Shown here: in pieces, positions 21-55,015 of the stretch
How the letters are laid out: every line of letters begins with the position of its first letter
How positions within the stretch are numbered: the stretch's first letter is position 1
Source of the DNA: Paraphaeosphaeria minitans
Taxonomy: Eukaryota > Ascomycota > Dothideomycetes > Pleosporales > Didymosphaeriaceae
Direction of reading: 5' to 3'
Length of the DNA stretch: 64,000 nucleotides
NCBI GenBank assembly: GCA_015832175.1
Contig: WJXW01000009.1
Location: 1,674,001-1,738,000, forward strand
Made by a program: the position numbers and the translations under genes
The notes under the pieces: generated by a model
Told to the model about the DNA's origin: nothing
Seen by the model: only the letters and a program-made list of their open reading frames with translations
Databases searched by the model: none

Positions 21-2030
21 ATGCAGCAGGAAGAAGTCGCCCAATCAGCCGCCACGGCCGATCGCCGTGCCAAAGAAGCAGCAGGTCAGCGTTCCAAAAC
101 AGAGGGTCACCGTGAAGCTCGCATTATGCCTGTACGGGCGGATGAGGAAAACGTCTCCGGACATCAAGAAGCTTTGCCAAAAATACGCCCGAACCTCCAA
201 ATCAGCGAACAATATTTCGCCGGCGCCGCATCCCCTGATCAGCGGCCCACCAGGCCGCTCGATCTCGATATCTACCGTGCACAGGTTCCCTCTGATAATA
301 TGAACTACATCCGACACCTTGGCTTTACTCCACCAAACATGATGTCCGAGGGTTCTCCCGAAGACGATCACGGATGGATATATCTCAATCTTTTGATCAA
401 CATGGCGCAGCTCCACACATTGAACGTTACTCCTGATTTTGTCAAAGATGCTGTTACCGAATACAGTTCCTTGTTCGAGCTCTCGCACGACGGTCGCAAA
501 ATCCGGTGGAGAGGCCATCCAGATGTCACGCTAAGCAGTACTGGCTCCAGTTCAGAGTACCAAGGCAATTCACCTTCCGAAGGGTTTGGCAACAGTAAAT
601 CACCTCACACATCTGCCAAAACGGGTGGAAGTGCTAGTTCGGGCCCTTCAATGAACCCCGAGCGTGTCGCGCAACGACTCGCTCGCAAGCAGAAGGAGAA
701 GGAACGGAACCAATTTTCCTATACACCTTTGTTCTTCCACAAGGACGACTCCGATGATGAGGAAGACTCATACGGGCTCGATACGAATTCTTCGAGCAAC
801 TCCCCGTATCAGGTACAACAGGCCGGCGATTCTTCCGGTCTCGGCAGTTCGGCCATGCAAAGCTCTTCATCTAAGAGACGTCGGAATGATGGACCCATCA
901 TCTTCTACAGCAAAGCGAAGTTCTGTACCGATCTGACCGGAGATAGTCGTGGGATTGCGAGTCACACTTCAGATTCCTATCAGAACATCACGAGTCATCC
1001 TATTGGAGCGCCGACCACCTATGCAGGACGGCTCACACAGTCTTCCAATATCATGGAACGCCGTGGCCCACTGGAGACCACCATGATGGACATCGATTCG
1101 AAAGATGGCAACCAGACTGCATCAAGTAGCGAAGAACTCAGTTTCTCGCCTGACGCACTGAATGATGACAACGGCACGGAGAGCCCCGAAGCTGTGGATT
1201 TTGAAGCATCCGGCTTGGGTGGAGTGCACCCAGAGGACAATTTTTCTATCCGCGTGCGACGTTCGCAACAGCAGACTGTTCCGGCCAGTGCAATCGCTGC
1301 TCGCCGCCGGTCTTTACTGTACCCAAAGAAGATCCTTGACGTTCTGAACAATGATGCAACCCGGGAAGACAATTCAACTTCAAAGCAGCAACAGAATGTC
1401 ATCAAGGAAGAGATACTTTCCGCATCTCGTAAAACTTTGCCAAACTCGGCACTACCTCCCGCTTCCTTCTTACCTTTCGACTCGACTTCATCAGGGGACG
1501 TGGACTCAGACCTTGAGTCCGATGTGTCATCCAGCCTTTCGAGTACCAGCTCCTCGGAGAATATCCCAGCTACCGCGCTCCATCTGCTCAATATTTCTCC
1601 CGCACACAGAGATTTTTCAAACGCTTCTAGAGACTCGTTCTCTGAAGAGGACGATGAGGACGACTCCGATGATGGTTCGATCGACCTCCTCGCGACTGCT
1701 CGCCGAATGGACCCGCACACTGTCATCGCTTCCGAGCGTGAGTACGATGCGTCTCTCGCCGATCGTCTTGCGGAAGAGATCCCTGCAGGAAGCTCCGCCG
1801 CCACGGCGGGCGGTGGCAGCGGCTTCAACACCCCGGCGAACGCCCTCGAAACCCTCATCAACCATGGCGAGTCAACCGGTCGCAGAAGCAGACAGAAGAG
1901 GCAGAGCACCACCAGCGGCAGTCTCTCCTCGCAAGCGCGCGCCAAGTTGAAGCGCAATCGCACGCGCGAGTCCATCGCTACCGCGCTCCAAGAAACCTCA
2001 AAGCGAGCCAGAACCCAGAAACGCGAGTGA
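21..2030 (+). CDS. Ser-rich acidic conserved fungal protein, probably nuclear
   Basis: A single open frame of 669 codons ends in TGA at 2028-2030. Family not identified. Residues about 75-165 look like the conserved part: a hydrophobic block around GWIYLNLLINMAQLH (about 118-132), then NVTPDF, and DGRKIRWRG at about 157-165. The rest is low complexity: Ser/Asn-rich stretches, acidic runs (DDSDDEED near 242 and EEDDEDDSDD near 543), a basic KRRR near 285 and a strongly basic last 55 residues that could act as nuclear localisation signals. This architecture suggests a disordered nuclear regulator (inference). The frame is open back to the window edge, so the ATG at 21 (context ACCAATG) may be the true start or may lie inside an exon that begins upstream. 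No RIP damage is visible. Confidence 0.7.
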   Translation: MQQEEVAQSAATADRRAKEAAGQRSKTEGHREARIMPVRADEENVSGHQEALPKIRPNLQISEQYFAGAASPDQRPTRPLDLDIYRAQVPSDNMNYIRHLGFTPPNMMSEGSPEDDHGWIYLNLLINMAQLHTLNVTPDFVKDAVTEYSSLFELSHDGRKIRWRGHPDVTLSSTGSSSEYQGNSPSEGFGNSKSPHTSAKTGGSASSGPSMNPERVAQRLARKQKEKERNQFSYTPLFFHKDDSDDEEDSYGLDTNSSSNSPYQVQQAGDSSGLGSSAMQSSSSKRRRNDGPIIFYSKAKFCTDLTGDSRGIASHTSDSYQNITSHPIGAPTTYAGRLTQSSNIMERRGPLETTMMDIDSKDGNQTASSSEELSFSPDALNDDNGTESPEAVDFEASGLGGVHPEDNFSIRVRRSQQQTVPASAIAARRRSLLYPKKILDVLNNDATREDNSTSKQQQNVIKEEILSASRKTLPNSALPPASFLPFDSTSSGDVDSDLESDVSSSLSSTSSSENIPATALHLLNISPAHRDFSNASRDSFSEEDDEDDSDDGSIDLLATARRMDPHTVIASEREYDASLADRLAEEIPAGSSAATAGGGSGFNTPANALETLINHGESTGRRSRQKRQSTTSGSLSSQARAKLKRNRTRESIATALQETSKRARTQKRE

Positions 2031-6118: not shown

Positions 6119-9100
6119 TCAAGCGTGCGATCTCGGCTTGGGCTTCTTGATCACCTTAGGATTTGCCTTGATGTCCTTCTCAACACTCTTGTGCCAAGTG
6201 TGAGGTATAAACTCCACCCCCAAACCCGAGTGGCGCGTTTTGCGAGATGCATCGTCTTGGCTCTCAAGCTCTGATGAGCTGCGTACCTTTGTGGACCCTA
6301 TTGACGCGTCATTGTTGAAACCCGTCGGCTCGCCAGGCTCCCTCCTCCGCCTCTTTGAACCTGGCTTAGAGCGGTTGGATAGACTGCCGTCGCTGACAGC
6401 CTCGCTTTGAGCTCGCGATCGCTTCCTTCGTACTGGCATCACTGACGCCGTGGACTCGGGCGACTCTGGGATAGCAAATATCGATTGATCTGATGCAGGC
6501 TGAGAGGATGGTGACGCAGAGAGTGCCTTTGTTAGATGCCCAGGAAAGCCGTTGCGGCTTACTGCGAGCGTCGCTGGAGTATCATTGAACTCGGGGATTA
6601 CATCGTCCTCGCCCACATCCCAACCAGGCTTCACACGAAGATCGAAACCGAACTCTCGCTTAAGTTGCGCCTCAAGCTCAGTATTTTGGGTCGGTTTCCG
6701 TGACGTCGTCACGCTGTTTGATATCGGTGGGTGAGCGTTCCTTCTACGGCCCCTTGGGACGGCACCGCTGGCATCGTCGTCTTCGTCTTCGTCTTCATCT
6801 TCATCGATATCTTGGGTAGTGTTGGAACTCGACTTGCTGCGACTGGCGTTAAGTGTGTTTCGACGGGAGTCAGACCTAGAAGGAGCCACTGTTTCCGTTT
6901 CACTGATCGTGTGGCTGTCATCAGATTCATCGGATATATCGACTTCCTCTTTGACTTCAGACGGCACCATCTTATGTGATTGGCATTCTGTGGATGGCCT
7001 TGCGGTATCGATTCGATTTTGTTTTCTGACATTAATGACCACGGACACAGAATGATTCTTCACGGTGTGCGCGTCATGGTCCACGGCTCTTCGGAGTTCA
7101 AGTCCCAGGGCCTTTGACACGCGTCTATCAACCGCGTTACCGACCATCTTGTACTGATCGCCGACGTTACCAATAAGAACCTCTTCGGCTGGTATGTCCT
7201 GCGCAAGCCTCGCCTCTTCCAATGTAATGCATCGATTCTGTTCCCAATGCACGAAAGGACCAGCACGAGAGTCATGTGGTGATGGGGCGGTGACAATTGT
7301 TCCGATCAACCCATTCTTGTCTATACGTCTGTAGGATTTGCTGCTGATCTCGCTTCTTGTTTCGTACAGGTACTTTGGTACGAGTCCACGTTTCACAGCG
7401 TATTCGATGCCAACACCCGGTGGATCAGTTGGCACGTGAGCTATGCATCTTCTTTCTCTTATATTGGGCCGGCATCGTAAGACATGGTCCGGAGAGCTGA
7501 TGCAAGGATGCCTTATGCCGCAGCCAATGTTCGGCAGATGTCCCAGTTTCTCGCCTGGGTTTACATGCTGTGGGAAGGGCGTAATTTGTGCATCCTGCAC
7601 ACCGAATCTTTCTCCGTTCAGAAGCCTCCCTACGCTCTTGCTCTTGAATCCTTCGGGGTCGCCATGCGTTGCACGTGGAGGTGCAAGTGGAGTTCGGCCT
7701 GGCGCCGCGATCGACAGAATCAGACGGTTTCGGTGCTGAGGACTACCGTAATGCCATGAACTCATGATGAATTGTTGGACTTGATACCCCATCGACACCA
7801 GACATCCGATGAGCTGTGATAGTACCAACTCCTCTTCGAAACCCTTGCGTGTCACCCCCATATTGACGACGTTTTCAAGGAAGCCGTACTCAGGTCGATA
7901 GACATCCACAAATGAAGCAAAAGTGGTGACGTGCGCAGCATTTCTCAGCGATTGTTCGCTCAACCAATCCTGTTGAAGTTTAGAGAATCCTGGGCAAGGA
8001 CTTCCCCCAACTATCACTCCTACAGCTCCAATCTTCGCGATAAGGTTCATGTGCGGTGAGTCGCCGGATAGTAAAGCGTGCAGATAATCGTCAACGGAGC
8101 CAAACCATAGCTTCAGCTTGTCAGGGTCTTCGGCATTGGCTCGTAAGGTCTGTATAGCGCGACCATTCATATCGACAGAAGTGTGGAAGTGCACTGCGCC
8201 GCCGGCTTCCAACCCCTTGTCCAGATTACCCAGACCGCTGAAGAGGCTCAGTCCCGGAAGCTTTTTTGACGAGTCCATTGTGGCATAATCTGGTCCTTGA
8301 CGCAATTGTTGTGGTGCGGTGCTCAGATTCTCAAGTGTGTATCCATCAGAGCCAACTCGCGTCGAGAGTGTCCAACAATGGCCGGTACCTCCTTGGTCGT
8401 AAGGAAATCGTATGCGACTAGTTGCCATGTCCTCGCGCGTGTAGAAGCGTACATAGCACCTTCCTTCAATTTTAGAAAGCGTTACGCAGTCGAATTTGTC
8501 TGTCCAGACCAGTTCGTTGGCGGCTATTTTCCGTGGAAAGGTCTCGTGAGTAGTCTTCGGTGCGAGCTTGCATAGTCGTTCAAGGCGTCGAATCTTGACT
8601 TGCTTCTCCCTTGTATTCACCTCTTCCACAACAACTGGCTCCAGAACGTCCTTCTCTCGCACGTACACCGTATCTCCGGAGCAATAAGTACGCTTGGCTA
8701 GTGCATATCTTGGACGAGAGCCCTGACACGTGCAGCGAAAGTCCGTTTCCTTCATCGTAATGAACGAGCTGGTTTCTGTTTCAAATCTTTGTCGAACCAG
8801 AAACTCCTTGTGCGTATCGTAACTTCGGGAGAACCACTCTACAGTGCATCGTCTTGTGACTTCTGAAGATAGAAGTGTATGTTCTTGACAGTTGCAGTTG
8901 TCTGACATGAAGAGCTCCTTTGTGACGGGGTAATGTGTTGTACTGATCGTCGTATCCTCCGGTCTATATAGCCAGATCACGTACAGACGTTGACGGCCAT
9001 CTGCTAGAAATGTAATGCGTTGAACATACCCAATCCATTCGTGAACGGTGGTTGCATCCTTGGCTTTCTTCCGCCACATCTGGTTTTCGAACTCGTCCGG

Positions 9101-10239
9101 GGCTATGCAAACCACATCGCCAATTTCAAACGTGGTTCGCTGTTGGCTTGCATGTGGTAGGTTAGCAGAAGAGATCGGGTGCCTCTTCGAAGGTAACCCA
9201 AGCGTTCTGAGTCTATTTTCGCGAGCCTCAAGGACGGCGCTGGATGGCTGCATTTCCATGATCTGTCCAGCGAAGTACCTGTTTTTGAAACATTCGTAGA
9301 CGTGTGGTGTTGCAACTGTCTTCTCGCATTCCAGTTGGATCATGTTACCGTCAGTCCTTTCACACTGTTTCCATAGCGGATGTTTGAACAGCGAATCGTC
9401 TTGTAGACACATAGCCTCTGACCACAAATACGGAATATATGCATGTAGTATCTTTCGAAAGTCGGTCGATCCATAAGCCTCGCGCCACTTGTTGACATCT
9501 AAATGGTCCGGGAAGCGCTGCTGAAGCCATCTATGGAACCTTTCTCGGAAATCTGTCAACGCGACGCACTCGTTATCTTCTAAATAATCCATGGTATGTT
9601 TACCGAGAGTCGCTATCCATTGGAAAGCATCGTGAAAGCCTGTGTACGGACGACTTGGTGCACCTAGTCTGTACCAAACGTCGTGCGTTCGGTCGTTGCT
9701 GGCGTCGTGAGAAACTATGTAGACTGTCACATTGGGATCGTCGTCCACGCCGTAACCCTCGATCGAATAGCTTTTGATGGGGATGCCTTGAACGTAGTGT
9801 CGCGTGGAGCCCATCGAGAGCACGCCATTGAAGAAAAGCTTCTTTCCGGCTACATCCATGAAATCCAGCGAGTGCAGTTCGCCTATAAAGTTGGTTTCCG
9901 GCTTAGTGTATATTTCATAATCTGTGGCGTCGATGTAAAGTGGCTTCCTACCGCTCCTGTGGCCATCCTCGTCCTGTGCGTCGTGTGGCTGAACGATCGA
10001 CGCGGCCTACCAGGGTCAGCGTCTACACTGTCATGCCGACTTGAAGTGGTCCTCACTTTCAACGACTTGATTGCTTCCGCTTCTGATACTCTACGTACGT
10101 CGTGCCTCCATGCTTTATCGTAGTGTCGCGGAAAATGTCCTTCGTCTGTGAACAACGCTATGCTCGAAGACTTAGGAATCACCACGACTGGACTGCGTGA
10201 CGGAGGCTTCATGCCGCTCTCGGCGGAGACGTGTGGCAT
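6119..10239 (-). CDS. DNA cytosine-5 methyltransferase, Dnmt1/DIM-2-like
   Basis: The enzyme transfers a methyl group from S-adenosylmethionine to C5 of cytosine. Two exons, 10239-10057 and 10006-6119, are split by a 50-bp intron and give 1356 residues; Neurospora DIM-2 has about 1450. The order is an RFTS-like region (HDVWYRLGAPSRPY, about residues 165-200), a first BAH-type domain (FEIGDVVCIAPDE, about 350), a second (YCSGDTVYVREKD, about 503), then the catalytic domain. Motifs seen: I (LSLFSGLGN, about 648), IV (GGSPCPGFS with the catalytic Cys, about 730), VI (ENV, about 773), VIII (QHRNRL, about 821) and X (GNAVDRRVSKALG, about 1020). A Ser/acid-rich tail of about 280 residues follows. 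The two BAH domains and PCPGFS favour DIM-2 over RID. No inactivating change is visible, so the gene should be functional. It lies 2.5 kb from RIP-mutated repeats that such an enzyme would be expected to methylate. Confidence 0.93.
10007..10056 (-). other. Methyltransferase intron 1
   Basis: 50-bp intron: donor GTGAGG, branch point GCTGAC, acceptor GGTAG, phase 0. It joins IKSLK to AASIVQ and links the short N-terminal exon to the long exon, whose frame is open immediately after the acceptor. Confidence 0.85.
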
Positions 10240-14264: not shown

Positions 14265-14291
14265 GTAACTAGTACTAGGGGAGAGAAGGTA
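14265..14291 (-). repeat. Right arm of inverted repeat, first part
   Basis: CTAGTACTAGGGGAGAGAAGG is the inverse of the arm end at 13898-13920. It is interrupted at 14291 by the A-D insertion and resumes at 55021. The last five bases, AGGTA, form the target-site duplication. Confidence 0.8.
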
Positions 14292-14747
14292 TATTAAATC
14301 TAAGAGGGTAGCTAGTCCTAAAGGGTTAAGGTTAGTTCTTAGGCAGGAGTACTTACAGAAGGTGGAAGGTCTTATTAATATAATAGTATCTTATAAAGTG
14401 TAATAAGTTAATAATTTAGTCTACTAGAATCTAAATAATAGATTAATAAATAGATTAAATATAAGTATAAGAAGCTTATTCTCGCGTTCCTATATACTAA
14501 GTAGTCCTACACTTCCTAGAATCCCATATGTCCTAGAGTCCTATATGTCCTAGAGTCCTATATGTCCTAGAGTCCTATACGGGCAAGTCCTACGCATCCT
14601 AGAGTTCCTGTATAGGTAAGACCTATGCGGTCCTTAGGACCTTTAGGACCTATAACTTATTATGTAACTACTTAGTTAGCTAACTCTAGTAAACTAGTAG
14701 TTTAATAAGTTTACGCCCTACTACTTATACGTAGCTAGATCCTAATA
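14292..14747 (-). repeat. LTR of A, 3' (left) copy
   Basis: 456 bp, ends TATTA...TAATA (RIP-altered TGTTA...TAACA). The half nearest 14292 is the U5/R side shared with elements B and E. The other half is a U3 unique to A/D, with four 17-bp tandem units at 14514-14581. Confidence 0.9.
14514..14581. repeat. 17-bp tandem repeat in A/D U3
   Basis: Four consecutive near-identical units of TCCTAGAGTCCTATATG. The same array occurs in the other A/D LTRs (near 20806 and 54782). As a U3 array it could be an enhancer or regulator-binding array. Confidence 0.85.
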
Positions 14748-14870
14748 TTATTCTCCCCTTCTAAGCTTAATATTCTTATAAGTTAACTACTTATAAAGTT
14801 ATTATTTTATTCTATTTAATATTACTATAGTTAAGCTAATTATCTTAAGAAAGACTACGTTTTTATAATA

Positions 14871-15370
14871 GTTACCTATTTATACTATACTAAAAAGAAA
14901 TACACTTATTATCTTTTTTCTTTACACTCTTAGTGTACTAACTATATTAAGTAGAGAAACTAGAAGTGTAAGCCTAAAAAGATTCCTTTACTAGATTATT
15001 TAAAAATAGATGCTAAAATAGAGAGGTTAGAGAAGTTAGAGGCTAAAGAAGAGGTAAAGCTCTATATTAAGAAAAAGATAGCTAAGGCAGCTCTTCTTTA
15101 CACCTATTAAGTGTAAAAGAAGATAGCGCGTCTACGTAATTAGTAAAAGAAATTATATTAGAAAGAATAAAAATTATTTAATTATAGTATAAGTACTATA
15201 GATAAGTTAGAAGCGCTTAAAGCGTAGGAGGAGTTAGTGTAGGCTATTGCGTTAATAAATCCTAACGCGCTATTAGGCGCTAAAGTAATTAACTAGTCTA
15301 TTTTATAGGCTAGCCCTTATACTAGTAGTAATTCCTAGGTGCGTTTTAGTTGTCTCTTTATAATTTCTAG
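14871..15370 (+). pseudogene. Antisense ORF of A: Zn2Cys6-like cluster plus coiled coil
   Basis: The ORF lies between chromodomain and 3' LTR on the strand opposite gag-pol. From 14877 the frame gives Y-x2-Y-x6-Y-x8-C-x2-Y-x7-C (last Cys at 14967-14969). Each Tyr codon is one RIP transition (TGC/TGT to TAC/TAT) from Cys, so the ancestral spacing matches the fungal Zn(II)2Cys6 binuclear cluster. A Lys/Glu/Leu-rich heptad region follows (KIERLEKLEAKEEVKLY and on), a likely coiled-coil dimerisation segment as in Zn2Cys6 regulators. Several TAG/TAA stand for Gln. DNA binding is inferred, not shown. The same arrangement recurs in D, E and B. Confidence 0.6.
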
Positions 15371-28216: not shown

Positions 28217-28454
28217 TGTTAGTTTGGCTTAATCTATAATTAAGCATTTAAGGGTTAATAGTATACTATTGTGTAAAGGGTAAGAAGTAGGTTTAATTAA
28301 TTACGTCTAGTTTATTGTACAAAGGGGCACTAAGGGCTTTATGAAGTCTCTGCCTCTTAGCGCTAACCTAAGTAGTGGGTCCTTATGCGGGTCCCTACAG
28401 GTAGGTAGGCCCCCACTTCACCCAGTGCTACTTGTATAATAAACTGTACGGACA
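28217..28454 (-). repeat. LTR of F, 5' (right) copy
   Basis: 238 bp, TGTTAG...GGACA, followed by the AATTA target duplication. Confidence 0.9.
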
Positions 28455-28456
28455 AA

Positions 28457-28960
28457 TTACCTATTTATACTACGCTAAGAAGAAATATACTTATTATCTT
28501 TTTTCTTTACACTCTTAGTGTACTAACTATATTAAGTAGGAAAATTAAAAGTATAAGCCTAAAGAGATCCCTTTACTAGATTATTTAAAAATAGATACTA
28601 AAATAGAGAGGTTAAAGAAGTTAGAGGCTAAAGAAGAAGTAAAACTCTATATTAAAGAAGAGCTAGCTAAGACAGCTCTCCTTTACACTTATTAGGCATA
28701 AAAGAAGATAGCGCATCTACGTAATTAGTAAAAGAAATTATATTAGAAAGAATAAGAATTATTTAATTATAGCATAAGTACTATAGATAAGTTAAAAGCG
28801 CTTAAAGCGTAAGAGGAGTTAGCGTAGGCTACTATATTAATAAATCCTAACACGCTATTAGGCGCTAAAGTAATTAACTAGTCTATTTTATAGGCTAGCT
28901 CTTGTGCTAGTAGTAATTCCTAGGTGCATTCTAGTTATCTCTTTATAATTTCTAGCGTCT
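28457..28960 (+). pseudogene. Antisense ORF of D: Zn2Cys6-like cluster plus coiled coil
   Basis: Same subtype as the ORF in A, with further Cys lost: from the codon TAT at 28463 the pattern is Y-x2-Y-x6-Y-x8-C-x2-Y-x7-Y, then the Lys/Glu-rich coil. The Copia element F sits immediately upstream, so any start and promoter in the D 3' LTR (21038) are now 7.3 kb away. Confidence 0.55.
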
Positions 28961-37400: not shown

Positions 37401-37522
37401 GTTGCTAGGCATAATACTAACAGATATACTTATAGTAAGTGGGGTTAGTAGAACAGCTTACGTAATAATAGCCAAGATCTAAACATATAATTTAGGACAA
37501 ATCTATAAAAGAGAAGGGATAA

Positions 37523-37952
37523 TGTTAAGATCTAAAATCTACATAATAGTAGGAAGCCAGTTTTATACCTAGTGGGCGCGTAGTAAGAATTAAGCGGGGA
37601 CTTAATACTAGCTACGCCTTAAACAAAGAAGTTACGTAACTACTCTCTACAGAGCGCTTAATTACTCTGTGCAGAGCATAATACACATAACCGCTCTATA
37701 TAGAGCGCTCTCTACAGAGCGCTCCCCACAGAGTAGACTTTACTTAGTATATAGGAACGCGAGGATAGACTCTCTATACTTATATTTAATCTATTTATTA
37801 ATCTATTGTTTAGATTCTAGTAGACCAAATTATTAACTCATTACACTTTGCAAGATACTATTATATTAATAAGACCTTCTACTTTCTGTAAGTACTCCTG
37901 CCTAAGAACTAACCTTAACCCTTTAGGACTAGCTACCCTCTTGGATTTAACA
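37523..37952 (+). repeat. LTR of B, 3' copy
   Basis: 430 bp, same ends as 31292-31721; differences from the 5' copy are mainly transitions, followed by the ACCCC duplication. Confidence 0.92.
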
Positions 37953-38499
37953 ACCCCTACCTTAGCGTAGTAATAGAATAGTAGTCGCCCCCCCTAGTAT
38001 AAATATAGCCCTAGTAGCACCTTCGCTCTAGATAACTCTAGCCTAGCATAGTAGTAACTATAATTAGAATCTAGTAGTGTTAGCCAATAATATAGTAGGG
38101 TAGATAAATAATATAGGGAATTATATTTAGTAATCTAAAAAGAGCATAGGCTAGCGCCTAAACAAGATAACCTAGACCTAAGCGTAAACTACTAACCTAC
38201 TCACCACTATTATAGAGCAACTTAGGACAGCTTCTAGCTAATACTACTCTACCCTCCTAGTAGCCCTAGCCTAATAGTGTATACCCTTTAACTTATATTA
38301 AGAGCCTTATAGAGTAACTCTACTTAAGCTTTTATTTAGGGCTAGCTTAGTATACCTTTCTAAGTGCCGCTACTACTAGTGTAAAGAGTAATATAGTTAT
38401 TATAGCCCCCTTTTATTCCTACTTAGTGTTACTTTAGTGCCGCTTTAGTTATAGCAACCCTAGGGCTAATAGCCTTTAGTAGTTTTTAGATAAATAGCG

Positions 38500-43633: not shown

Positions 43634-43638
43634 TCTTA

Positions 43639-46491
43639 TTAGTTAGTCTAGGATAAGAAAAGTAAGTTTCTTTACTGTTATTCTTTTAAGACATAAAATG
43701 AGCTTAATATACTTAGTTAGTTAGTAGACTATTACTAGTATACTATCGTATTTAATTCCTGTTATTAGATCCTTAGAGTTTAAAATTCCTATAACAAAAT
43801 CTATAGTAATGTCTTGCTATAGTGCTATTAGTATTCTAATTGCTTACATCTCTCTATATTTAAGATATATACTATATTTGTTTCTCTAGCATTCTATATA
43901 TTTATAGATATAAGCTATTACAGCTTCCCTAATTCCTTTAAAGGTATAATTCCTTTAGATAAGTTCTATTATTTTTGTAATGCCTAGGTGTCTATACATA
44001 GGGTTATTGTGGTATTATTAGATAATCTTAGTCTATAGATATTCTAGAACTTCTTAGTTAATTACTAAAAGTTAATTTAGTTCTACTATTAGCTCTAGAG
44101 ATTTATCTTTAGCTTTACAAAGGATTACAGAGAAAGTTTTTGCCTTTTCTCCTACTAGATTACTTTGTTAGCTAAGAGCGTCTACTCTACTATTTTCTTT
44201 TCTAGCTACATAGATAATTTTAAACTTATACTATCTAGTAGTTTACGACTATCTTTGTTATTATGGCGTAAGTTCTTTTGTTGTTATAAACCTTAGAAGG
44301 TTCTTATAATTTATATAGATTTCTAGTGTTAAGTAACTAAGTGCGTAAATCCTCTAGTGCTTTAAGGCTTTAATAATAGCGTAGAGTTCTTTATTATGTA
44401 CATTGTATCGTGTTTTAGCGTTATTAAATTTATATAAGTAATAGGCAATTAGGTGCTATTTACTATTATATTTTTATTTAGCGTAGGCGCCTAGCGTAAG
44501 ATCGCTAGTGTCTATTTTAAAGCGTAGTAGTTTATTACTTTTAAAATAAACAAAGATAGGTTCTATAATACATACTGTCTTAAGGAGTTAAAATAACATT
44601 CTACACTTATTTATCTATTTAAAGGGTACGTTCTTCTTTATAAGATTTATTAAAGGTATTGTGACCTTTATGTAATTTTAGATAAATTGTTAGTTAAATC
44701 CACAGAATCCTAAAAATTCTTGGATATTCTTGGCTATCTTTAGTATTAGCTAGTTCTTAATATATTTAACTTTACTTAGTGCTATCTTAATTCCTTCTAT
44801 AGTAATAATATGTCCTAGGAATTTAAGTTATTTAACGTTAAACTTATATTTCTTAAGTTTAATATAAAGGCATGCTTTATCTAGTGCTTCTAGTACTATC
44901 TATACATACTTAGTGTAGTCTAATTCGTTTTTAGAAAGGACAAGGATATTGTCTATATACGCGATAACAAATATGTCTAGATGTTTATAGAGTACATTAT
45001 TAATAAGTGCTATAAAAGCTACTAGTGCATTTGTAAGTCTAAAAGGTATAACTTTGTATTTAAATAGTCTATAGTGTAATTAAAACGCTGTTTTCTATTC
45101 TTTACCTTTCTTAATTTGTATAAGGTGGTAACCGTCTCTTAGATCTATTATTATAAATATCTTAGCTTAAGATAATTAATCTTGTAACTCTATAATATTT
45201 AGTAGTAGATATTAGTTCTTTATTATTATATTATTAAGTTATTAGTAGTTAACGTATAGTCTGTCTAATCTATCCTTTTTCTTAACAAACATAAAAGGGC
45301 TTACTACTAGTAACTTTAATAGTTATATATATCCTTTCTTAAGGTTTATCTTAATAAAATTACGTTCTTTAAGGAGTTCTTTTCCTATCTTACTATATAG
45401 TAGTCTAAAGGGTAACGTCTTCCCTTCTTCTAGGTCTATTATAAGATCCTAGGGTTAATATTCTAGTAGGTTTGCTTTTACTTCCTTTTCTGTAAATATA
45501 TATATTTATTTCCTATACTCTCTTAGTAAGGTAAGGGGTGTACTATTGTCCTTCTTCTTACGCTTCTTAAACTAGTAGTTCCTACCAGCATCTACTAAGG
45601 TGTGCTTTTGTTTTTTAACTATCTATTATAGTATTATGTTGTTAATAACTCCCTTATCTACTATTATTTTTAGTTAATACGTAGGTTTTACTTATAATAT
45701 ATAATTATAGCGTTTAAATAATATTTTCTTCGTACCCTAGTTAATCTGCAGGTTATGTATTATTAACTAAGGTAATCCTAAGACTAACTTATACTTAGAT
45801 CCTAGTAAGATATCTAAGGTAAGTTCCTTTCTATGTCCTTAGACTATTATTGTGGTAGTGACCTCTTAGTATATTTAAGGTGTCTTGGGTATTAGGGATC
45901 TATTAGCGATATAGATAATATAGGATACTTTTTTCTCTAATATTATAAGTCCTGCTTATCTTACTATTTAATAAGATATAAAGTTTCTTTCTACTCCTAA
46001 GTCTATAAGAGCTTAAGCCTATATTCCTTTAAGCTATACTAGTAGCTTAACTAATACTATGCTTACTATAGTATTTAATTTAATAAAGGCGTTTTCTTAT
46101 CTAAGTTTAGGCCTAAAAAAGACATCTATTTGTGTAGGTTGTAATTAAGTTCTAGTGCCTAGTATGCGTTTCTAAGCATCTACTTTTATTATTATTCTTA
46201 AGTATATAGCTTATGTAGATTATCTTCTTTTTCTTCCTATAAGGATGTTCTTCTGTTTTTCCTCCTATAGTCTTTACTGTTTCTATGTACTAGTTAAATT
46301 AGTAGTTCTGTTATTACTTCTTACGTAGGGCAGTTTACAAAGCTGTCTAAATGTTTAGCTATATAGTAGTATTTACAGTCTTAGTTTAAACACGTATACT
46401 AGTACAGTTATATATAGTCTCTATTAATAAGTATATTATAGTATTTATTGCCCTTTAGCGTAAGGTAAGGAAAGTATTTTACTTATTATTT
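43639..46491 (-). pseudogene. D pol fragment: integrase to protease
   Basis: Continues D after element C. Integrase lies near 43,640-44,100, RNase H near 44,480-44,560, reverse transcriptase with YIDN at about 44,940-44,985 and the protease side up to 46,491, where chromovirus E interrupts. Homologous throughout to A (about 16,246-19,110). Confidence 0.82.
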
Positions 46492-46901
46492 TGTTAAATC
46501 CAAGAGGGTAGCTAGTCCTAAAGGGTTAAGGTTAGTTCTCGGGCAGGAGTACTTACAGAAGGTAAAAGGTCTTGTTAATATAATAGTATCTTATAAAGTG
46601 TAACAAGTCAACAATTTAGTCTGCTAGAATCCAAATAATAGATTAATAAATAGATTAAACACGAGTATAGAGGTCCATTCTTATATTCCTATATAATAGG
46701 GCTACTCTAATGCTCAGTGTTACTAAGCAACTAAACACATTACGTAACCTACTCTACTACTTAGTGCTACTAAGCGACTAAGCACATTACATAACCTAAT
46801 CTAAGTTACTTAGCGTCTCTTTATTACATTCATAACCCTATCGCTATTCCATTACACCTTTATAAGCGCCCAAGTCCTACATTATTATCTAGTACGTAAC
46901 A
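46492..46901 (-). repeat. LTR of E, 3' (left) copy
   Basis: 410 bp, TGTTAAATCC...TACGTAACA. The U5/R side is shared with A/D and B. U3 is unique, with two copies of a roughly 47-bp unit (CACTTAG/ACTAAGC-type, about 46,718-46,815). Confidence 0.9.
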
Positions 46902-46989
46902 TTATCCCCTCCTTTTCTATTCTTCGTCCTAAAGAATCATACCTACTAACTATAATTCTATAAAGCGTTGTTACAACCTTATCTTTACT

Positions 46990-47440
46990 ATTAAAAACTA
47001 TAGAGTAGTTATAGTATTAAAGTGCTCTTTCTACAAGTTACACTCTTACGTTTATAAAGTCTACGTTAGCTTAAAGAAGTGTAGTAAGTGTTAGAAATAA
47101 GACTTAAAGTGTAATATAGCTATTACTAGGAACAAGTTCTCGCGGTTAATTACTAAGAAGAAGAAGTTAGAGGCGCAAATGTTAGAGGCGCGAAAGGAAT
47201 AGGATACAGCGTTTAAGGCCCTACGTATAGCGCGCGCAAAAGAGGATTAGTTAGTAAAATAGTTAGCGCAGAATAAGAAGCGTGCTAGTAAAGTTATTAT
47301 AGTAGAGAGTGCTGCTCTAGTAGAGCTAGAGTTAGAGGAGGATCTAGCTTATCCTACTTAGCCTACTAGTCCAGCTAAACTTAGCACGTTTATATAGTTA
47401 GTAATAGACAACTTACCTCCTAAGTTCTAGGATAATTCTT
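46990..47440 (+). pseudogene. Antisense ORF of E: Zn2Cys6-like cluster plus coiled coil
   Basis: On the strand opposite gag-pol, from 47023 to 47112 the frame reads C-x2-Y-x6-Y-x8-C-x2-C-x6-C. Four of six Cys survive and the two Tyr are RIP-type changes, so the spacing is that of a fungal Zn2Cys6 cluster. A long Lys/Glu/Ala coil follows (KKKKLEAQMLEARKE and on), then an acidic, Pro-containing tail (ELELEEDLAYPT). Only a few TAG/TAA interrupt about 140 codons, which makes this the best preserved member. The chromodomain lies on the other strand just beyond (47,500-47,575). Confidence 0.65.
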
Positions 47441-47479
47441 TAGCATTACCGTCTTAGGTAAGTCTGTTAATAGAATTCT

Positions 47480-50400
47480 TTAATCTTTTGTTAACAGTTT
47501 CCTAGGTAGTTCCTTAGTTCCTAAGTATTTTCGCTATGTGGGTATCCTTTCTATTTAATAAGGTACATATTACTATGCTAATTATATTCTAGAATTCTTT
47601 TAACCTTAAATTCATTTTCTTCCTTAGTTCTGTAGTAGAAGGTAGTTCTAACTAGTGTATTAGGGTCTGCTAGTTCCAGTAGTAATACGTAGAATACTAG
47701 GTGTATCTTTACATCTAGCAGTAGTTCCAACTTATAGTTTACTAGTAATATTTACTTAGAAATATAAAATAGTCTAACCTTAATATAATTTAGTTTCTTG
47801 TGTTTTTTCTTCTAAGTTTAAAGGTTCTTTGTAAGCAAATATACTTTATCCCCCTTCTTTAGCTAAGGTGCCATTTTTCGTTTTCTATTTTAATATAAAA
47901 TTAATTACTGCTAAGCTTTCTCAAGATTCTCTTAGAGTTGTTAGTGTATTTTCTTCATATTTTCTACTATATTAATAGCTTCTTTTGCTTTAATTATTAT
48001 AGGAAATTATTAATTAAAAAGATATAGGTGTCTTCTGTGGTTTACATAGAACAGTGTATGTCCTAATACTACTAATACTTTATTATTATAGGCCAACTGT
48101 ACTATAGGTAGTAATAAAACCTAGTTATTCTTCTAACTATTGCAGTAGATGCGTAGGTACGTTTCTATAGTTTAGTTCGTACGTTCTATCTATCCATCTA
48201 TTTATAGATAGTAAGCTGTTAATAGCTTTCGTTTCGTTCCAAGTAGTGCCATAAGTGTTGTCTAATAATTTAATGTAAAGAGCTTGTCTCTATTGCTAAT
48301 AATTATTTTTAGGATTCTGTAGTGTCTAATTAGTTAGTCCAAGATAAGAAAAGCGAGTTCCTTTACCATTATTCTTTTAAGATATAGAATAAGCTCAACA
48401 TACTTAGTTAGTTAGTAGACTATTACTAGTATACTATTATATTTAATTCCTGTTATTAGATCCTTAGAGTTTAGAATTCCTATAATAAAATCTATAGCAA
48501 TATCTTCCTATAGTACTATTAGTATTCTAATTACTTACATCTCTCTATATTTAAGATGTGTACTGTGTTTATTTCTCTAGCATTCTGCACATTTATAGAT
48601 ATAAGTTATTATAGCTTCCTTAATTCCTTTAAAAGTGTAATTCCTTTAGATAAGTTCTATTATTTTTGTAATACCCAGGTGTCTGTACATAGGGTCATTA
48701 TGGTATTATCAGATAATCTTGGTCTATAGATGTTTTAGAACTTCTTAGTTAATTACTAAAAGTTAATTTAGTTCTACTATTAGCTCTAGAGATCCATCTT
48801 TAGCTTTGCAAAGGATTGCAGAGAAAGTTTTTACTTTTTCTCCTACCAAATTACTTTATTAGCTAAGAGCGTCTGCTCTGCCATTTTCTTTCCCAGCTAT
48901 ATAGATAATTTTAAACTTATACTACCCTATAGTTTACAACCATCTTTATTATTATAGCGTAAGTTCTTTTGTTATTATAAACCTTAAAAGGTTTTTATAA
49001 TCTGTATAAATTTCTAGCGTTAAGTAACTAAGCGCGTAAATCCTCTAGTGCTTTAAGACTTTAATAATAGCGTAGAGTTCCTTATTATATACGTTGTATC
49101 GTGTTTTAGCGTTATTAAATTTGCATAAATAATAGGCAATTAGGTGCCATTTACTATTATATTCTTATTTAGCGTAAGCGCCTAGCGTAAGATCGCTAGC
49201 GTCTGTTTTAAAGCGCAGTAGTTTATTACTTCTAAAATAAACAAGAACAGGTTCTATAATACATACTATTTTAAGGAGTTAGAATAACATTCTACACTTA
49301 TCTATCTATTTAAAGGGTACGTCCTTCTTTATAAGATTTATTAAAGGTATTATAACCTTTACATAATTTTAGATAAATTATTAGTTAAATCCACAGAATC
49401 CTAAAAATTCTTAGATATTCTTAGCTATCTTTAGTATTAGCCAGTCCTTAATACATTTAACTTTACTTAGTGCCATCTTAATTCCTTCTATAGTAATAAT
49501 GTGTCTTAGGAATTTAAGTTATTTAACGTTAAACTTGCATTTCTTAAGTTTAATACAAAGGCATGCTTTATCTAGTGCTTCTAGTACTATCTATATATGC
49601 TTAGTGTGGTCTAATTCGTTTTTAGAAAAGACAAGGATATCGTCTATATACGCAATAATAAATATGTCCAGATGTTCGCAGAGTACGTTATTAATAAGTC
49701 CTATAAAAGCTGCTAGTGCGTTTATAAGTCTAAAAGGCATAACCTTATATTTAAATAGTCTGTAGCGTAATTAAAACACTATTTTCTATTCTTTACCTTT
49801 CTTAATTCATATAAGGTGGTAACTGTCTCTTAGATCTATTATTATAAATATCTTAGCTTAAGATAGTTAATCTTGTAACTCTATAATATTTAGTAGTAAA
49901 TATTAGTTTTTTATTATTATGTTATTAAGTTATTAGTAGTTAACGCATAGTCTATCTAATCTATCCTTTTTCTTAACAAACATAAAAGGGCTTACTACTA
50001 GTGACTTTAATAGTTATATATATCCTTTCTTAAGATTTGTCTTAATAAAATCACGTTTTTTAAGGAGTTCTTCTCCTATCTTACTATATAGTAGTCTAAA
50101 GGGTAGCGTCTTCCCTTCTTCTAGGTCTATCGTAAGATTCTAGGGTTAATATTCTAGTAGGTTTACTTTTCCTTCTTTTTCCGTAAATATGTGTGTCTAT
50201 TTCCTATACTCTCTTAGTAAGGTAAAAGGTGTACTATTGTCCTCCTTCTTACACTTCTTAACCTAGTGGTTCCTGCCAGCGTCTACTAAAGTGTATTTCC
50301 ATTTTTTAACTATCTGTTGCGGTATTATATTATTAATAACTCCCTTATTTACTATTATTTTTAGTTAATGCGTAGGCTTTACTTATAATACATAATTACA

Positions 50401-52640
50401 GCGTTTAAATAATATTTTCTTTGTACTCTAGTTAATCTGTAGGTTGTGTATTATTAACTAAAGTAATCCTAAGACTAACTTATACTTAGATCCTAGTAAG
50501 ATATCTAAGGTAAGTTCCTTTCTATATCCTTAGACTATTATTGTAGTAGTAATCTCCTAGTATATTTAAGGTATCTTGGGCATTAGGGATCTATTTGCGA
50601 TATAGATAATATAGGGTACTTCTTTCTCTAACATTATAAGTCCTGCTTATCTTGCTGTCTAATAAAATATAAAGTTCCTTTCTACTCCTAAGTCCACAAG
50701 AGCTTAAGCCTATATTCCTTTAAGCTATACTAGTAGCTTAACTAATACTATGCTTACTATAGCATTTAATTTAATAAAGGCGTTTTCTTATTTAAGTTTA
50801 GGCCTAAAAAAAACATCTATTTGTGTAGGTTGTAGTTAAGTTCTAGTGCCTAGTATACATTTCTAAGCATCTGCTTCCATTGTTATTCTTAAGTACGTGG
50901 CTTATATAGATTGTCTTCTTCTTTTTCCTATAAGGATGTTCTTCTATTTTTCCTCCTGCGGTCTTTACTATTCCTATATACTAGTTAAATTAGTAGCTCT
51001 ATTATTACTTCTTACGTAGGGTAGTTTATAAAGCTGTCTAAATATTTGGCCATATAGTAGTATTTGTAGTCTTAGTTTAGACACGTGTACTAGTATAGTT
51101 ATATATAGTCTCTATTAATAAGCATATTACAGTATTCATTACCCTTTAGCGTAAGGTAAGGAAAGTATTTTACTTATTATTTATCCTAGAGGTGTTTGTT
51201 GTAAGCTGTAATAGAGTAGTCTATCTATATCTATCTACAGCGCAGTTTCCTTCTAGGTTATTTCTTATTCTTTTCTTTCTCTGCCTTATATTATGCGTAT
51301 GTTGGTTCTTTGCAATACGTCCACATACAGAATTAGTATATAGGATTTTAGTAGTCTAGGTAGTACTTTAGTACATAGTCTAACTTCTTATTTTTATAGA
51401 GTTACATTCCTTTTAGTGCCTAGTAGGGTTCTATATAGTCCTAAACATTTAGTTTATACTTAGGTAACATAGGGTTATCTTCTTCCTGCCTACTTTATAG
51501 GTAAGGAGTAGGAGATCTTAGTATCTCTTCTACATCTTCTGTGTTATAGTATACATTAGAGTCGTCTTCTAGATCTTTGTATAGTTGTAAGTTAAGTAAA
51601 TCTAATTACTTACTTTACTCTAGTGTAACGCGTTAGTAACTAAATAGCGTTATAATAACTTCCTATTCCTTATTAGGTTCTTAGTTCTTAATAGTTAGTA
51701 CATTTAACTTAGTTTAATAGACTTTATTCTTTAATTTATAGTTCCTAGCTATGTAGCCCAGTTTGCTATATATAAAGCATTTACAGGTTTTAGTTATTAG
51801 TTGTTAACTTCTATTAGAGACGCGTTTATTAGGCTGCTTAGGGCCTATCTTTCCTCCTTTTCTTTTACCTATATAGTTAAACTAGACATCTTCTATTAGT
51901 TTGTATCTCTAGTAGTTCCTTAGCTATTACTTTTAGACAATTCTAATAGGGTTCTTATAAACCACTTTTACTAGTTATCTAAAGCTTATCGCCCTAGGGT
52001 TTTAGTAGAACTCCTATTACAGTAAAAACCACTCTCTATTAATTCTAATAGTTTCTTTGTACAGTTCTTTAAAATTAGCAATTTGTACACCACTACGCAA
52101 GAGTTCCTCACGTAGTTTCTATTTAAGTCCTTATTTGTACATGTCCTAAAGAGATTTATTGTCCTAGTTAAGTTACATAGCGTATTTATAAAACTTAGCT
52201 GTATACTTAGCTACTAATTATTTCTAAATTATAGTCTAAATCTTTGCTTTTGCAATAGAGTCCTTATTAGCGATCCTAAAGAGTTATTTAAGGCATTTCT
52301 TAAAGTTATTATAATCCTTAATAATGTTAACTACATTAGTATAGTTGTCTACGTAGTTATTATTGTCGTTATTATGGTCCATTCCTAGGTACTTTTTAAA
52401 GTAGAGATAGATCTATAATCCTACATCTCCTCGCATGTATGTTACTACGAAGATAACCTTCTTTTTATCTTTAAGGAGTTTGTCTAAGTTAAAGAAGTAG
52501 AGGTCTAACTAAAGAATCTAGACGTTAGTTTAAGATCGTTCGCTAAAGTAGAGATTAGGTTTATACGCCTTACTACTATCCTTTATAGGAGTAATCTTAG
52601 CAGCACCTAAAGCTATAAAAGAGGTAGAAGTTTGTAAAGT
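47480..52640 (-). pseudogene. gag-pol of E, RIP-inactivated
   Basis: Minus strand: gag knuckle near 51,740-51,790; reverse transcriptase with AYIDDI near 49,635-49,670 (catalytic pair intact); RNase H near 49,190-49,240; integrase about 48,000-48,800; chromodomain YLIK.KGYPHSENT.EL at 47,500-47,575. Despite milder damage, many TAA/TAG remain. Confidence 0.88.
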
Positions 52641-52663
52641 ACTTATATTAAGGGTATTTAAGA

Positions 52664-53073
52664 TATTAAATCCAAGAGGGTAGCTAGTCCTAAAGGGTTA
52701 AAGTTAGTTCTTAGGCAGGAGTACTTATAAAAGGTAGAAGGTCTTATTAATATAATAGTATCTTGCAAAGTGTAATAAGTTAACAATTTAGTCTGCTAGA
52801 ATCCAAATAATAGATTAATAAACAGATTAAACACAAGTATAGAGGTCCATCCTTATGTTCCTATATAATAGGGCTGCTCTAATACTCAGTGTTACTAAGC
52901 AACTAAGCACATCACGTAACCTACTCTACTACTTAGTGCTACTAAGCGACCAAGCACATCACGTGACCTAATCTAAGTTACTTAGCGTCTCTTTGTTACA
53001 TTCGTAACCCTGTCGCCGTTCCATTACACCTTTATAAGCGCCCAAGTCCCACATTGTTATCTGGTACGTAACA
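52664..53073 (-). repeat. LTR of E, 5' (right) copy
   Basis: 410 bp, TATTAAATCC...TACGTAACA, followed by the TATTT duplication. Differences from the left copy are mainly transitions. Confidence 0.9.
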
Positions 53074-53078
53074 TATTT

Positions 53079-54540
53079 ATCCTAGAGGTGTTTATTATAA
53101 GCTGCGATAAAGTAGTCTATCTATATCTATCTATAGCGTAGTTTCCTTCTAGGTTATTTCTTATTCTCCTCCTTCTCTACTTTATATTATACGTATATTA
53201 GTTCTTCGCAATACGTCTATATACAGAATTAGTATGTAGGATTTTAGTAGTCTAGGTAGTACTTTAGTACGTAGTCTAACTTCTTGTTTTTATAGGGTTA
53301 TATTCCTTTTAGTGCCTAGTAGGGTTCTATATAGTCCTAAACATTTAGTTTATACTTAGGTGACATAGAGTTGTCTTCTTCCTACCTACTTTGTAGGTAA
53401 AGAGTAGAAGATTTTAGTATCTCTTCTACGTCTTCTATATTATAGTATACGTTAGAGTTGTCTTCTAGATCTTTATATAGTTATAAGTTAGGTAAATCTA
53501 ATTACTTACTTTACTCTAGTATAACGCGTTAGTAACTAAATAGCGTTGTAATAACTTCCTATTCTTTATTAGGTTCTTAGTCCTTAATAGTTAGTACATT
53601 TAACTTAGTTTAATAGACTTTGTTCTTTAATCTATAGTTCCTACCTATATAGCCTAGTTTACTACATATAAAGCATTTACAAGTTTTAGTTATTAGTTAT
53701 TAACTTCTATCTAAAACGCGTTTATTAGGCTACTTAGGGCCTATCCTTCCTCCTTTTCCTTTACCTATATAGTTAAACTAGACATCTTCTATTAGTTTAT
53801 ATCTCTAGTAGTTCCTTAGCTGTTGCTTTTAGACGATTCTAATAGGGTTTTTATAAACTATTTTTACTAGTTGTCTAAAGCTTATTACCCTAGGGTTTTA
53901 GTAGAGCTCCTATTACAGTAAAAACTATTCTCTATTAATCCTAATAGTTTTTTTATATAGTTCTTTAAGGTTAGTGATTTGCGCACTACTACGTAAAAGT
54001 TCTTTATATAGTTTCTATTTAAGTCCTTATTTGTACATATCCTAAAGAGATTTATTGTCCTAGTTAAGCTATACAGCGTATCTATAAAACTTAGCTATAT
54101 ACTTAGCTACTAATTATTTCTAAGTTATAGTCTAAATCTTTGCTTTTGTAATAGAGTCCTTATTAGTAATTCTAAAGAGTTATTTAAGGCATTTCTTAAA
54201 GTTATTATAATTCTTAATAATGTTAACTATATTAGCGTATTTGTTTACGTAATCGTCGTTATTGTTATTATAGTCTATTCTTAGGTACTTTTTAAAGTAG
54301 AGATAGATTTATAATTCTATATCTCTTTGTATATATATTACTACGAAGATAACCTTCTTTTTATCTTTAAGGGGTTTATTTAAGTTAAAGAAGTAGAGGT
54401 CTAACTAAAGAATCTAGACGTTAGTATAAAATTGTTTACTAAAGTAGAGATTAGGTTTATACGCCTTACTACTATCCTTTATAGAAGTAATCTTAGCGGC
54501 ACCTAAAGCTATAGAAAAGGTAAGAGTTTGTAAAGTACTT
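53079..54540 (-). pseudogene. D gag fragment
   Basis: Last internal piece of D, minus strand, with a gag zinc-knuckle relic near 53,640-53,690. It runs to the 5' leader beside the LTR at 54,560. Confidence 0.8.
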
Positions 54541-54559
54541 ATATTAAGGGTGTTTAAGA

Positions 54560-55015
54560 TGTTAAATTTAAGAGGGTAACTAGTCCTAAAGGGTTAAAGT
54601 TAGTTCTTAGGTAGGAGTACTTATAAAAGGTAGAAAGTCTTATTAATATAATAGTATCTTGCAAAGTGTAATAAGTTAATAATTTAGTCTACTAGAATCT
54701 AAATAATAGATTAATAAATAGATTAAATATAAGTATAAGAAGCTTATTCTCGCGTTCCTATATACTAAGTAGTCCCACACTTCCCAGAATCCTATATATC
54801 CTAGAGTCCTATATATCCTAGAGTCCCATATATCCTAGAGTCCCGTGCGGGCGAGTCCCACGCGTCCTAGAGTTCCTATATAGGCGAGGCCTATGCGGTC
54901 CTTAGGACCTTTAGAACCTATAACTTATTATCTAACTGCTTAGTTAGCTAACTTTAGTAGACTAGTAGTCTAATAAGCTCGCGCCCCGCTGCTCACGCGC
55001 GGCTGGATTCTAATA
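54560..55015 (-). repeat. LTR of D, 5' (right) copy; outer end of compound A-D
   Basis: 456 bp. The U3 side keeps more GC than the other two A/D LTRs (for example GCTCGCGCCCCGCTGCTCAC). The target duplication AGATA follows. Confidence 0.9.

What the first reader, a model, noticed from the sequence alone, without database searches (positions are those of the whole stretch)
46990..47440. Chromoviruses carry an antisense ORF with a Zn2Cys6-like cluster and coiled coil
Seen: in E, A, D and B, always between chromodomain and 3' LTR and always opposite to gag-pol, a frame encodes six positions spaced C-x2-C-x6-C-x8/9-C-x2-C-x6/7-C. Losses at those positions are Tyr, exactly what RIP makes of TGC/TGT. 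A Lys/Glu-rich coil follows. E keeps four of six Cys. Known: this spacing plus a coiled coil defines fungal Zn(II)2Cys6 transcription factors. Inference: the elements encode their own DNA-binding regulator, transcribed from the 3' LTR side against the genome. I know of no established role for such a protein in Ty3/Gypsy elements.
Basis: partly seen in the sequence, partly recalled or inferred. Interest (0 to 1): 0.88.

Follow-up and report, generated by a model that had tools for sequence, protein, structure and literature searches.

The report
Swappable antisense regulator gene in retrotransposons
Fungal jumping elements in this genome carry a small backwards-reading gene, once protein-coding, that looks like a zinc-cluster DNA-binding protein and is exchanged together with the element's own promoter, which suggests a self-contained control cassette.

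Summary
Opposite gag-pol of element E lies a RIP-damaged frame (about 46939-47457). In 21 of 21 copies examined the six positions hold only Cys or Tyr. A profile of damaged rows finds intact relatives; the 21 aligned keep all six Cys. One is letter for letter a stop-free frame of the window's own genome (L029), PMIN01_12119 of Paraphaeosphaeria minitans. Transversions, which RIP does not make, show purifying selection: 21 of 29 synonymous, p=4e-11. The model has two CxxC helices and a long helix; 12 of 13 PDB matches are Zn2Cys6 chains, all weak. Pfam's cut-off is not met.

New: three antisense gene types sit on nearly one gag-pol and R-U5 (10 transversions in 5.4 kb, E against B), each with its own U3 (31 of 31 scored loci; L029 set apart). 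The U3s carry type-specific repeats near the TATA box. Best reading: a swappable cassette of regulator gene plus target promoter. Antisense genes there are known (brtn, Retand); Zn2Cys6 likeness and cassette exchange did not appear in my searches. DNA binding is untested.

The parts
46939..47457 (+). E-type antisense gene (RIP-damaged), antisense to gag-pol
   Evidence: limits by alignment to the open L029 frame
47023..47112 (+). six Cys/Tyr positions of the Zn2Cys6-like cluster in E
   Evidence: all Cys in the 21 aligned relatives
47128..47337 (+). predicted long helix (coiled-coil-like) after the cluster, mapped approximately from model residues 64-131
46492..46902 (-). E 3' LTR (approximate limits); 0 transversions against the 5' LTR over 407 nt
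46699..46902 (-). type-specific U3 of E (part of the exchanged cassette)
46492..46698 (-). R-U5 shared by all three types
52664..53074 (-). E 5' LTR (approximate limits)
47452..52663 (-). E gag-pol region; with R-U5 it aligns to B over 5425 columns at 90% with 10 transversions. Similarity to B ends at 47452, low-transversion similarity to A ends near 47660
47473..47610 (-). chromodomain of E pol, mapped from L029
36927..37412 (-). B-type antisense gene (RIP-damaged; ends approximate)
37522..37744 (+). type-specific U3 of B 3' LTR, GCTCT-N4-AGAGC-like dyads
37745..37953 (+). shared R-U5 of B 3' LTR
14778..15338 (+). A-type antisense gene (RIP-damaged; 2 transversions from the open L101 frame)
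14502..14747 (-). type-specific U3 of A 3' LTR, direct repeats
14291..14501 (-). shared R-U5 of A 3' LTR
28444..28884 (+). D: A-type antisense gene, partial

Best explanation
The antisense frame is a genuine accessory gene of these Ty3/Gypsy chromoviruses. It encodes a protein of about 160-190 residues with a Zn2Cys6-like cluster followed by a long helix. Most likely it is a small dimeric DNA-binding regulator, transcribed from the 3' LTR U3 backwards into the element. It would act on the repeated half-sites in U3, and so, through the 5' LTR copy of U3, on gag-pol transcription (and on its own). Gene and U3 form one cassette that has been exchanged between near-identical gag-pol backbones. A single template switch near the end of pol during minus-strand synthesis would bring both across, since U3 of the progeny comes from the 3' end of the RNA and R-U5 from the 5' end. 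Shown: coding nature and past purifying selection (E-type), six-Cys conservation in the aligned relatives, exchange of gene plus U3 on a shared backbone, type-specific repeats in U3. Inferred: zinc and DNA binding, dimer, target sites, antisense promoter, sign of regulation, template-switch mechanism.
For: Coding: 21 of 29 transversions synonymous, only indel 6 nt in frame; homologs; six Cys invariant in 21 aligned relatives; E and A proteins 24% identical over 143 aa with the six Cys in register. Fold: AF2 mean pLDDT 77, short helices after each CxxC, helix 64-131; 12 of 13 Foldseek PDB matches are Zn2Cys6 chains of six proteins (family label partly recalled); Leu3 1.8 A over 35 residues, LAC9 2.0 A over 32; LAC9 also matched by P0070 at the cluster, E 0.2. 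Cassette: E-B 10 transversions in 5425 columns, then antisense gene and U3 without a match at the threshold used; A against E 10 transversions from 52870 to 47660, then 24 down to 47462; antisense type equals U3 type in 31 of 31 places (11 E, 14 B, 6 A). Sites: GGGAC seven times direct plus GTCCC twice in L101, 47-bp unit twice in L067, dyads in B.
Confidence: 0.5

Rival explanations
1. The protein is real but the U3 link is hitch-hiking: U3 exchange is favoured because it escapes host silencing or changes host-factor responsiveness, and the adjacent antisense gene is carried along. The U3 repeats are sites for host factors.
For: Physical adjacency; CACGTG in the E-type U3 is a common host-factor box (recalled); a single switch explains joint transfer without any functional link.
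Against: The E-type antisense gene was under purifying selection, and all three types have natural members with the six Cys.
Confidence: 0.25
2. The protein is a nuclear accessory factor not acting on U3 transcription: for example guiding integration or chromatin state, or entering the pre-integration complex, with the coil binding Gag or chromodomain partners.
For: The element is a chromovirus with its chromodomain next to the gene; the A-type exchange begins near 47660, before the chromodomain (47473-47610), and so takes it in; a maize antisense protein at the same place is nuclear (PMC7264820 passages).
Against: E-B similarity runs on through the chromodomain to 47452, though with 3 of its 10 transversions and 5 gap positions in the last 169, so between E and B the pairing exchanged is gene with U3 while the chromodomain is mostly kept.
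Confidence: 0.13
3. The antisense transcript itself is the working product: it pairs with gag-pol RNA and feeds silencing, and the frame is incidental.
For: Convergent arrangement; dsRNA roles are discussed for such genes (PMC7264820 passages).
Against: Synonymous bias of transversions and protein similarity between types that share no matching DNA at the threshold used.
Confidence: 0.07
4. Chance frame in AT-rich RIP-mutated DNA.
For: RIP creates many TAY codons and long runs without clear meaning.
Against: Open frames of 170 and 186 codons in unmutated copies, homologs with E down to 8e-84.
Confidence: 0.01

Closest known systems
brtn of Boty-like elements, Botrytis cinerea (Zhao et al. 2011, not held; seen as reference and in passages of PMC8365987, PMC7264820, PMC4227169, PMC5987419)
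   Same: Fungal LTR element with chromodomain in gag-pol and an additional antisense gene placed between pol and 3' LTR
   Different: Sequence relation to BRTN not tested (sequence not held). No zinc cluster or cassette exchange is mentioned in the passages seen.
Antisense genes of plant Retand (TRP28, PF04195), Grande gene23, RIRE2, PvRetro13 (PMC11963269 and PMC7264820, passages seen)
   Same: Antisense ORF between pol and 3' LTR; predicted DNA binding (TRP28) or nuclear (Grande); proposed regulator of transposition
   Different: Different protein domain, plants, and no link of gene type to U3 type in the passages seen
HTLV-1 HBZ (mentioned in PMC11963269; details recalled)
   Same: Antisense-encoded nuclear protein with a coil, transcribed from the 3' LTR side; works-like analogue
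   Different: bZIP, not a zinc cluster; no homology claimed
Fungal Zn(II)2Cys6 regulators (GAL4, PPR1, PUT3, HAP1, LEU3, LAC9; PF00172)
   Same: Cys spacing, two short helices after CxxC, following long helix
   Different: Far smaller protein (recalled), below the Pfam cut-off, carried by a retroelement; CGG half-sites not prominent

Membership tests
Zn(II)2Cys6 binuclear cluster (PF00172) | C-x2-C-x6-C-x5..14-C-x2-C-x6..9-C | tested here: met
   20 of 21 A5 members fit this pattern as scripted; the 21st (P0006) has x7 in the second gap. 29 of 30 host Zn_clus loci fit the same script.
Zn(II)2Cys6 binuclear cluster (PF00172) | Pfam gathering score 21 bits | tested here: not met
   Best 14.9 bits, P0070; 6 of 21 A5 members match at E up to 5, best E 0.11
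Zn(II)2Cys6 binuclear cluster (PF00172) | Zn2Cys6 fold | tested here: inconclusive
Zn(II)2Cys6 binuclear cluster (PF00172) | Coiled-coil dimerisation element after the cluster | tested here: inconclusive
   Single helix 64-131, block pLDDT 85-96 from residue 71 on; dimer not modelled
Zn(II)2Cys6 binuclear cluster (PF00172) | Two zinc ions bound, sequence-specific DNA binding | not testable with these tools
   needs protein
[quoted passage not shown]
[quoted passage not shown]
Ty3/Gypsy chromovirus | Integrase followed by chromodomain at the end of pol, LTRs | tested here: met
   L029: Integrase_H2C2, SH3_Tf2-1, Chromo above cut-off, rve 29.3 bits just under 32.6; L101: Chromo, SH3_Tf2-1 above cut-off; LTRs

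The most novel reading that the evidence does not exclude
These retrotransposons carry an exchangeable control cassette, a zinc-cluster regulator gene read backwards plus the promoter half of the LTR holding its own binding sites, so that near-identical element bodies change their regulatory identity in one template switch, giving co-resident elements separate, non-cross-talking control circuits.
Probability: 0.38. Interest if true: 0.87.

Novelty: new variant of a known kind. Interest (0 to 1): 0.68.

Why it matters
Antisense genes between pol and the 3' LTR recur in plant and fungal LTR elements, and their function has been an open question (passages in PMC7264820, PMC11963269). Here several gene types sit with distinct U3s on one shared backbone, each U3 with its own array of repeats. 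That turns the question into a direct matrix test: does each protein recognise only its own U3? If so, these elements evolve regulatory identity by swapping factor and promoter together, an analogue of antisense regulators in retroviruses, built from a very common fungal regulator fold.

Tried and rejected
Rejected: chance frame. Rejected: a simple divergence account for the different antisense genes, since the same elements differ by 0.2-0.6% transversions over the rest of their alignable length.

Led nowhere: Pfam on the damaged rows (no Zn_clus); viral contigs (368 stretches matched a pattern, none confirmed); PDB sequence search with the A5 profile (nine chains, none a Zn2Cys6 protein); NCBIfam (nothing near a cut-off); profile-profile comparison with host Zn_clus domains (weak); B-type model (too poor to search with); codon test for A-type (only 2 transversions, uninformative); CGG triplets.

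Rows dropped: one search gave 52 proteins. I read 32 of them (7, 25) and put 21, near full-length, into A5. The 11 read but left out are P0002 (six Cys, lacks the N-terminus), P0007, P0008, P0020, P0027, P0032, P0044, P0045, P0046, P0048 and P0050, which are shorter or decayed; several of these lack one or more of the six Cys, so six of six holds for the 21 chosen and not for all 52. Copy searches scored 40 of 190, 150 of 333, 138 of 138, 40 of 181 and 150 of 208 candidates, so copy numbers are lower bounds. In one search, L029 has an E-type antisense gene but no U3_E match at the threshold used (its U3 is interrupted; E-like at 82%) and is not among the 31; for L080 the best pol match is a neighbour's; L007 and L073 also hold parts of a neighbouring A-type element. 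One search tested 9 of the 11 E, 13 of the 14 B and 6 of 6 A U3 copies.

Literature: full-text searches. I saw listings (20 of 249 papers; 10 of 12) and passages of five papers. None of what I saw described a Zn2Cys6 antisense gene or a U3-plus-antisense exchange. The original brtn paper is not held.

Full report
WHAT IS THERE. The window (C9:1674001-1738000 of a 47.45 Mb assembly) is gene-bearing to about 13 kb, then AT-rich with nested LTR elements. In E, gag-pol runs on the minus strand between LTRs at about 52664-53074 and 46492-46902, which differ by no transversion over 407 nt. Between the end of pol and the 3' LTR, on the plus strand, lies the frame of the finding. It holds C-x2-Y-x6-Y-x8-C-x2-C-x6-C and then a Lys/Glu-rich stretch, with 8 stops over 150 codons. 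A, D and B have frames of like layout.

IS IT REAL. At least 40 places in the genome match the E frame at 88-100% (40 of 190 candidates scored). In 21 distinct E places all 126 cells at the six positions are Cys or Tyr (77 and 49), with 3-5 Cys kept and 7-11 stops per copy; none of the 20 fetched copies has a gap against the window in 46990-47457. A profile of 13 damaged rows (11 E-type, one B, one A) found 7 proteins, five of them close and intact over the cluster. One, P0003, is PMIN01_12119 of Paraphaeosphaeria minitans, named by UniRef 'Zn(2)-C6 fungal-type doma...' (name cut in the output). A stop-free frame in the window's own genome, L029:1483-1995 minus (contig C15), gives P0003 letter for letter, and C15 has the length listed for P0003's longest contig (1,603,724). 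I take the host to be this species (Pleosporales). It is the only stop-free match among 150 scored. A-type likewise has one stop-free match among 150, L101:1048-1608 plus, 186 aa. B-type has none among 138, but intact public relatives exist (P0013, P0014). In both open genomic cases the 3' part of pol opposite is open and ends in a chromodomain, and the two frames converge: 1483 against 1486 in L029, 1608 against 1614 in L101.

SELECTION. RIP makes transitions only, so transversions are an independent witness. Between L029 and the window copy they number 6, 1 and 22 at codon positions 1, 2 and 3; 21 of 29 are synonymous where 16.5% is expected (p=4e-11), and the only indel is 6 nt, in frame. 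Two further E copies give 20 of 27 each but share history. The A pair has 2 transversions and says nothing. Of 127 transitions in the window copy relative to L029, 109 are C>T or G>A, and 90 of those 109 are in CpA context.

THE CASSETTE. E and B align over 5425 columns, R-U5 through pol, at 90% with 10 transversions. The antisense genes and the U3 halves of the LTRs give no match at E 1e-8, and R-U5 aligns again. A against E has 10 transversions from 52870 to 47660, then 24 down to 47462, 21 of them in the last 158 aligned positions, then no match; A against B behaves alike. The chromodomain of E maps to 47473-47610, so the A exchange takes it in, while the E-B similarity runs through it with 3 transversions and 5 gap positions in the last 169. 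So gag-pol is one backbone with three 3' cassettes. Over 31 places (11 E, 14 B, 6 A) the antisense type and the U3 type agree in 31 of 31, with R-U5 at 0-2 transversions and pol at 0-8 per match (for one B place, L080, the best pol match is a neighbour's and is not counted in that range; L029, with its interrupted U3, is not among the 31). The exchanged stretch is what one template switch near the end of pol would bring across; that mechanism is an inference from how retroelements copy their ends.

U3. The antisense start lies about 37 nt (L029) and 30 nt (L101) from the LTR edge as read from the printed sequence, with a purine-rich tract between, and about 110 nt in B. The antisense promoter must then lie largely in the LTR (inference). 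The unmutated A-type U3 (L101) has GGGAC seven times direct, 8-17 nt from start to start, and GTCCC twice, shortly before TATATAGGAACGC. The unmutated E-like U3 (L067) has a 47-bp unit twice with CACGTG and GCTCAG/CTGAGC. B copies have GCTCT-N4-AGAGC-like dyads. Against 300 shuffles each, the top 6-mer was reached 6 times or fewer in 6 of 9 E, 5 of 13 B and 4 of 6 A copies, 1 time in L067 and 0 in L068; the window's own E U3 was reached 77 times. Dyads were reached 8 times or fewer in 10 of 13 B copies and in L068, and in no E or A copy. Of 12 control stretches none had a top 6-mer reached 6 times or fewer or dyads reached 8 times or fewer. Copies are related, so these are not independent tests.

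HOW IT MOST LIKELY WORKS. A small zinc-cluster dimer made from the 3' LTR binds the half-site array of its own U3 and tunes gag-pol and itself. The sign (activator or repressor) is open. The alternative that gene and U3 travel together only because they are neighbours is not excluded.

PRIOR WORK. Antisense genes at this place are known: brtn in Boty (passages in PMC8365987, PMC7264820, PMC4227169, PMC5987419) and plant families (PMC7264820 passages; PMC11963269 passages, TRP28, predicted DNA binding). The 2020 review says no clear similarity to other proteins had been described for them. Searches listed, in the parts shown, no Zn2Cys6 antisense gene and no exchange of gene with U3.

Noticed in passing
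6119-9859 (-) and 21-2030 (+): A DNA methylase with BAH and DUF7893 domains and a FRQ C-terminal part lie next to the RIP-damaged block; the methylase resembles fungal DIM-2 (recalled).
   Followed up: no
46491 / 53074: E looks inserted into another element with A-like LTR; its parts continue on both sides (43634-46491 and 53074-55015).
   Followed up: partly
L068:1130-1503: An LTR upstream of the C15 element has a fourth kind of U3 (CTGATC repeated, palindromes) on the shared R-U5, while the 3' LTR of that element has an E-like U3, so its two LTRs differ in U3.
   Followed up: partly
L029:2085-3236: A 1.15 kb GC-richer stretch interrupts the U3 of the 3' LTR beside the stop-free E-type antisense gene.
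   Followed up: no
P0054, P0055 and relatives: A further kind of antisense-like protein with x11 in the middle gap, from unnamed sources.
   Followed up: no
L101:1-202: An inverted LTR piece lies just beyond the A-type LTR of the open C19 copy.
   Followed up: no
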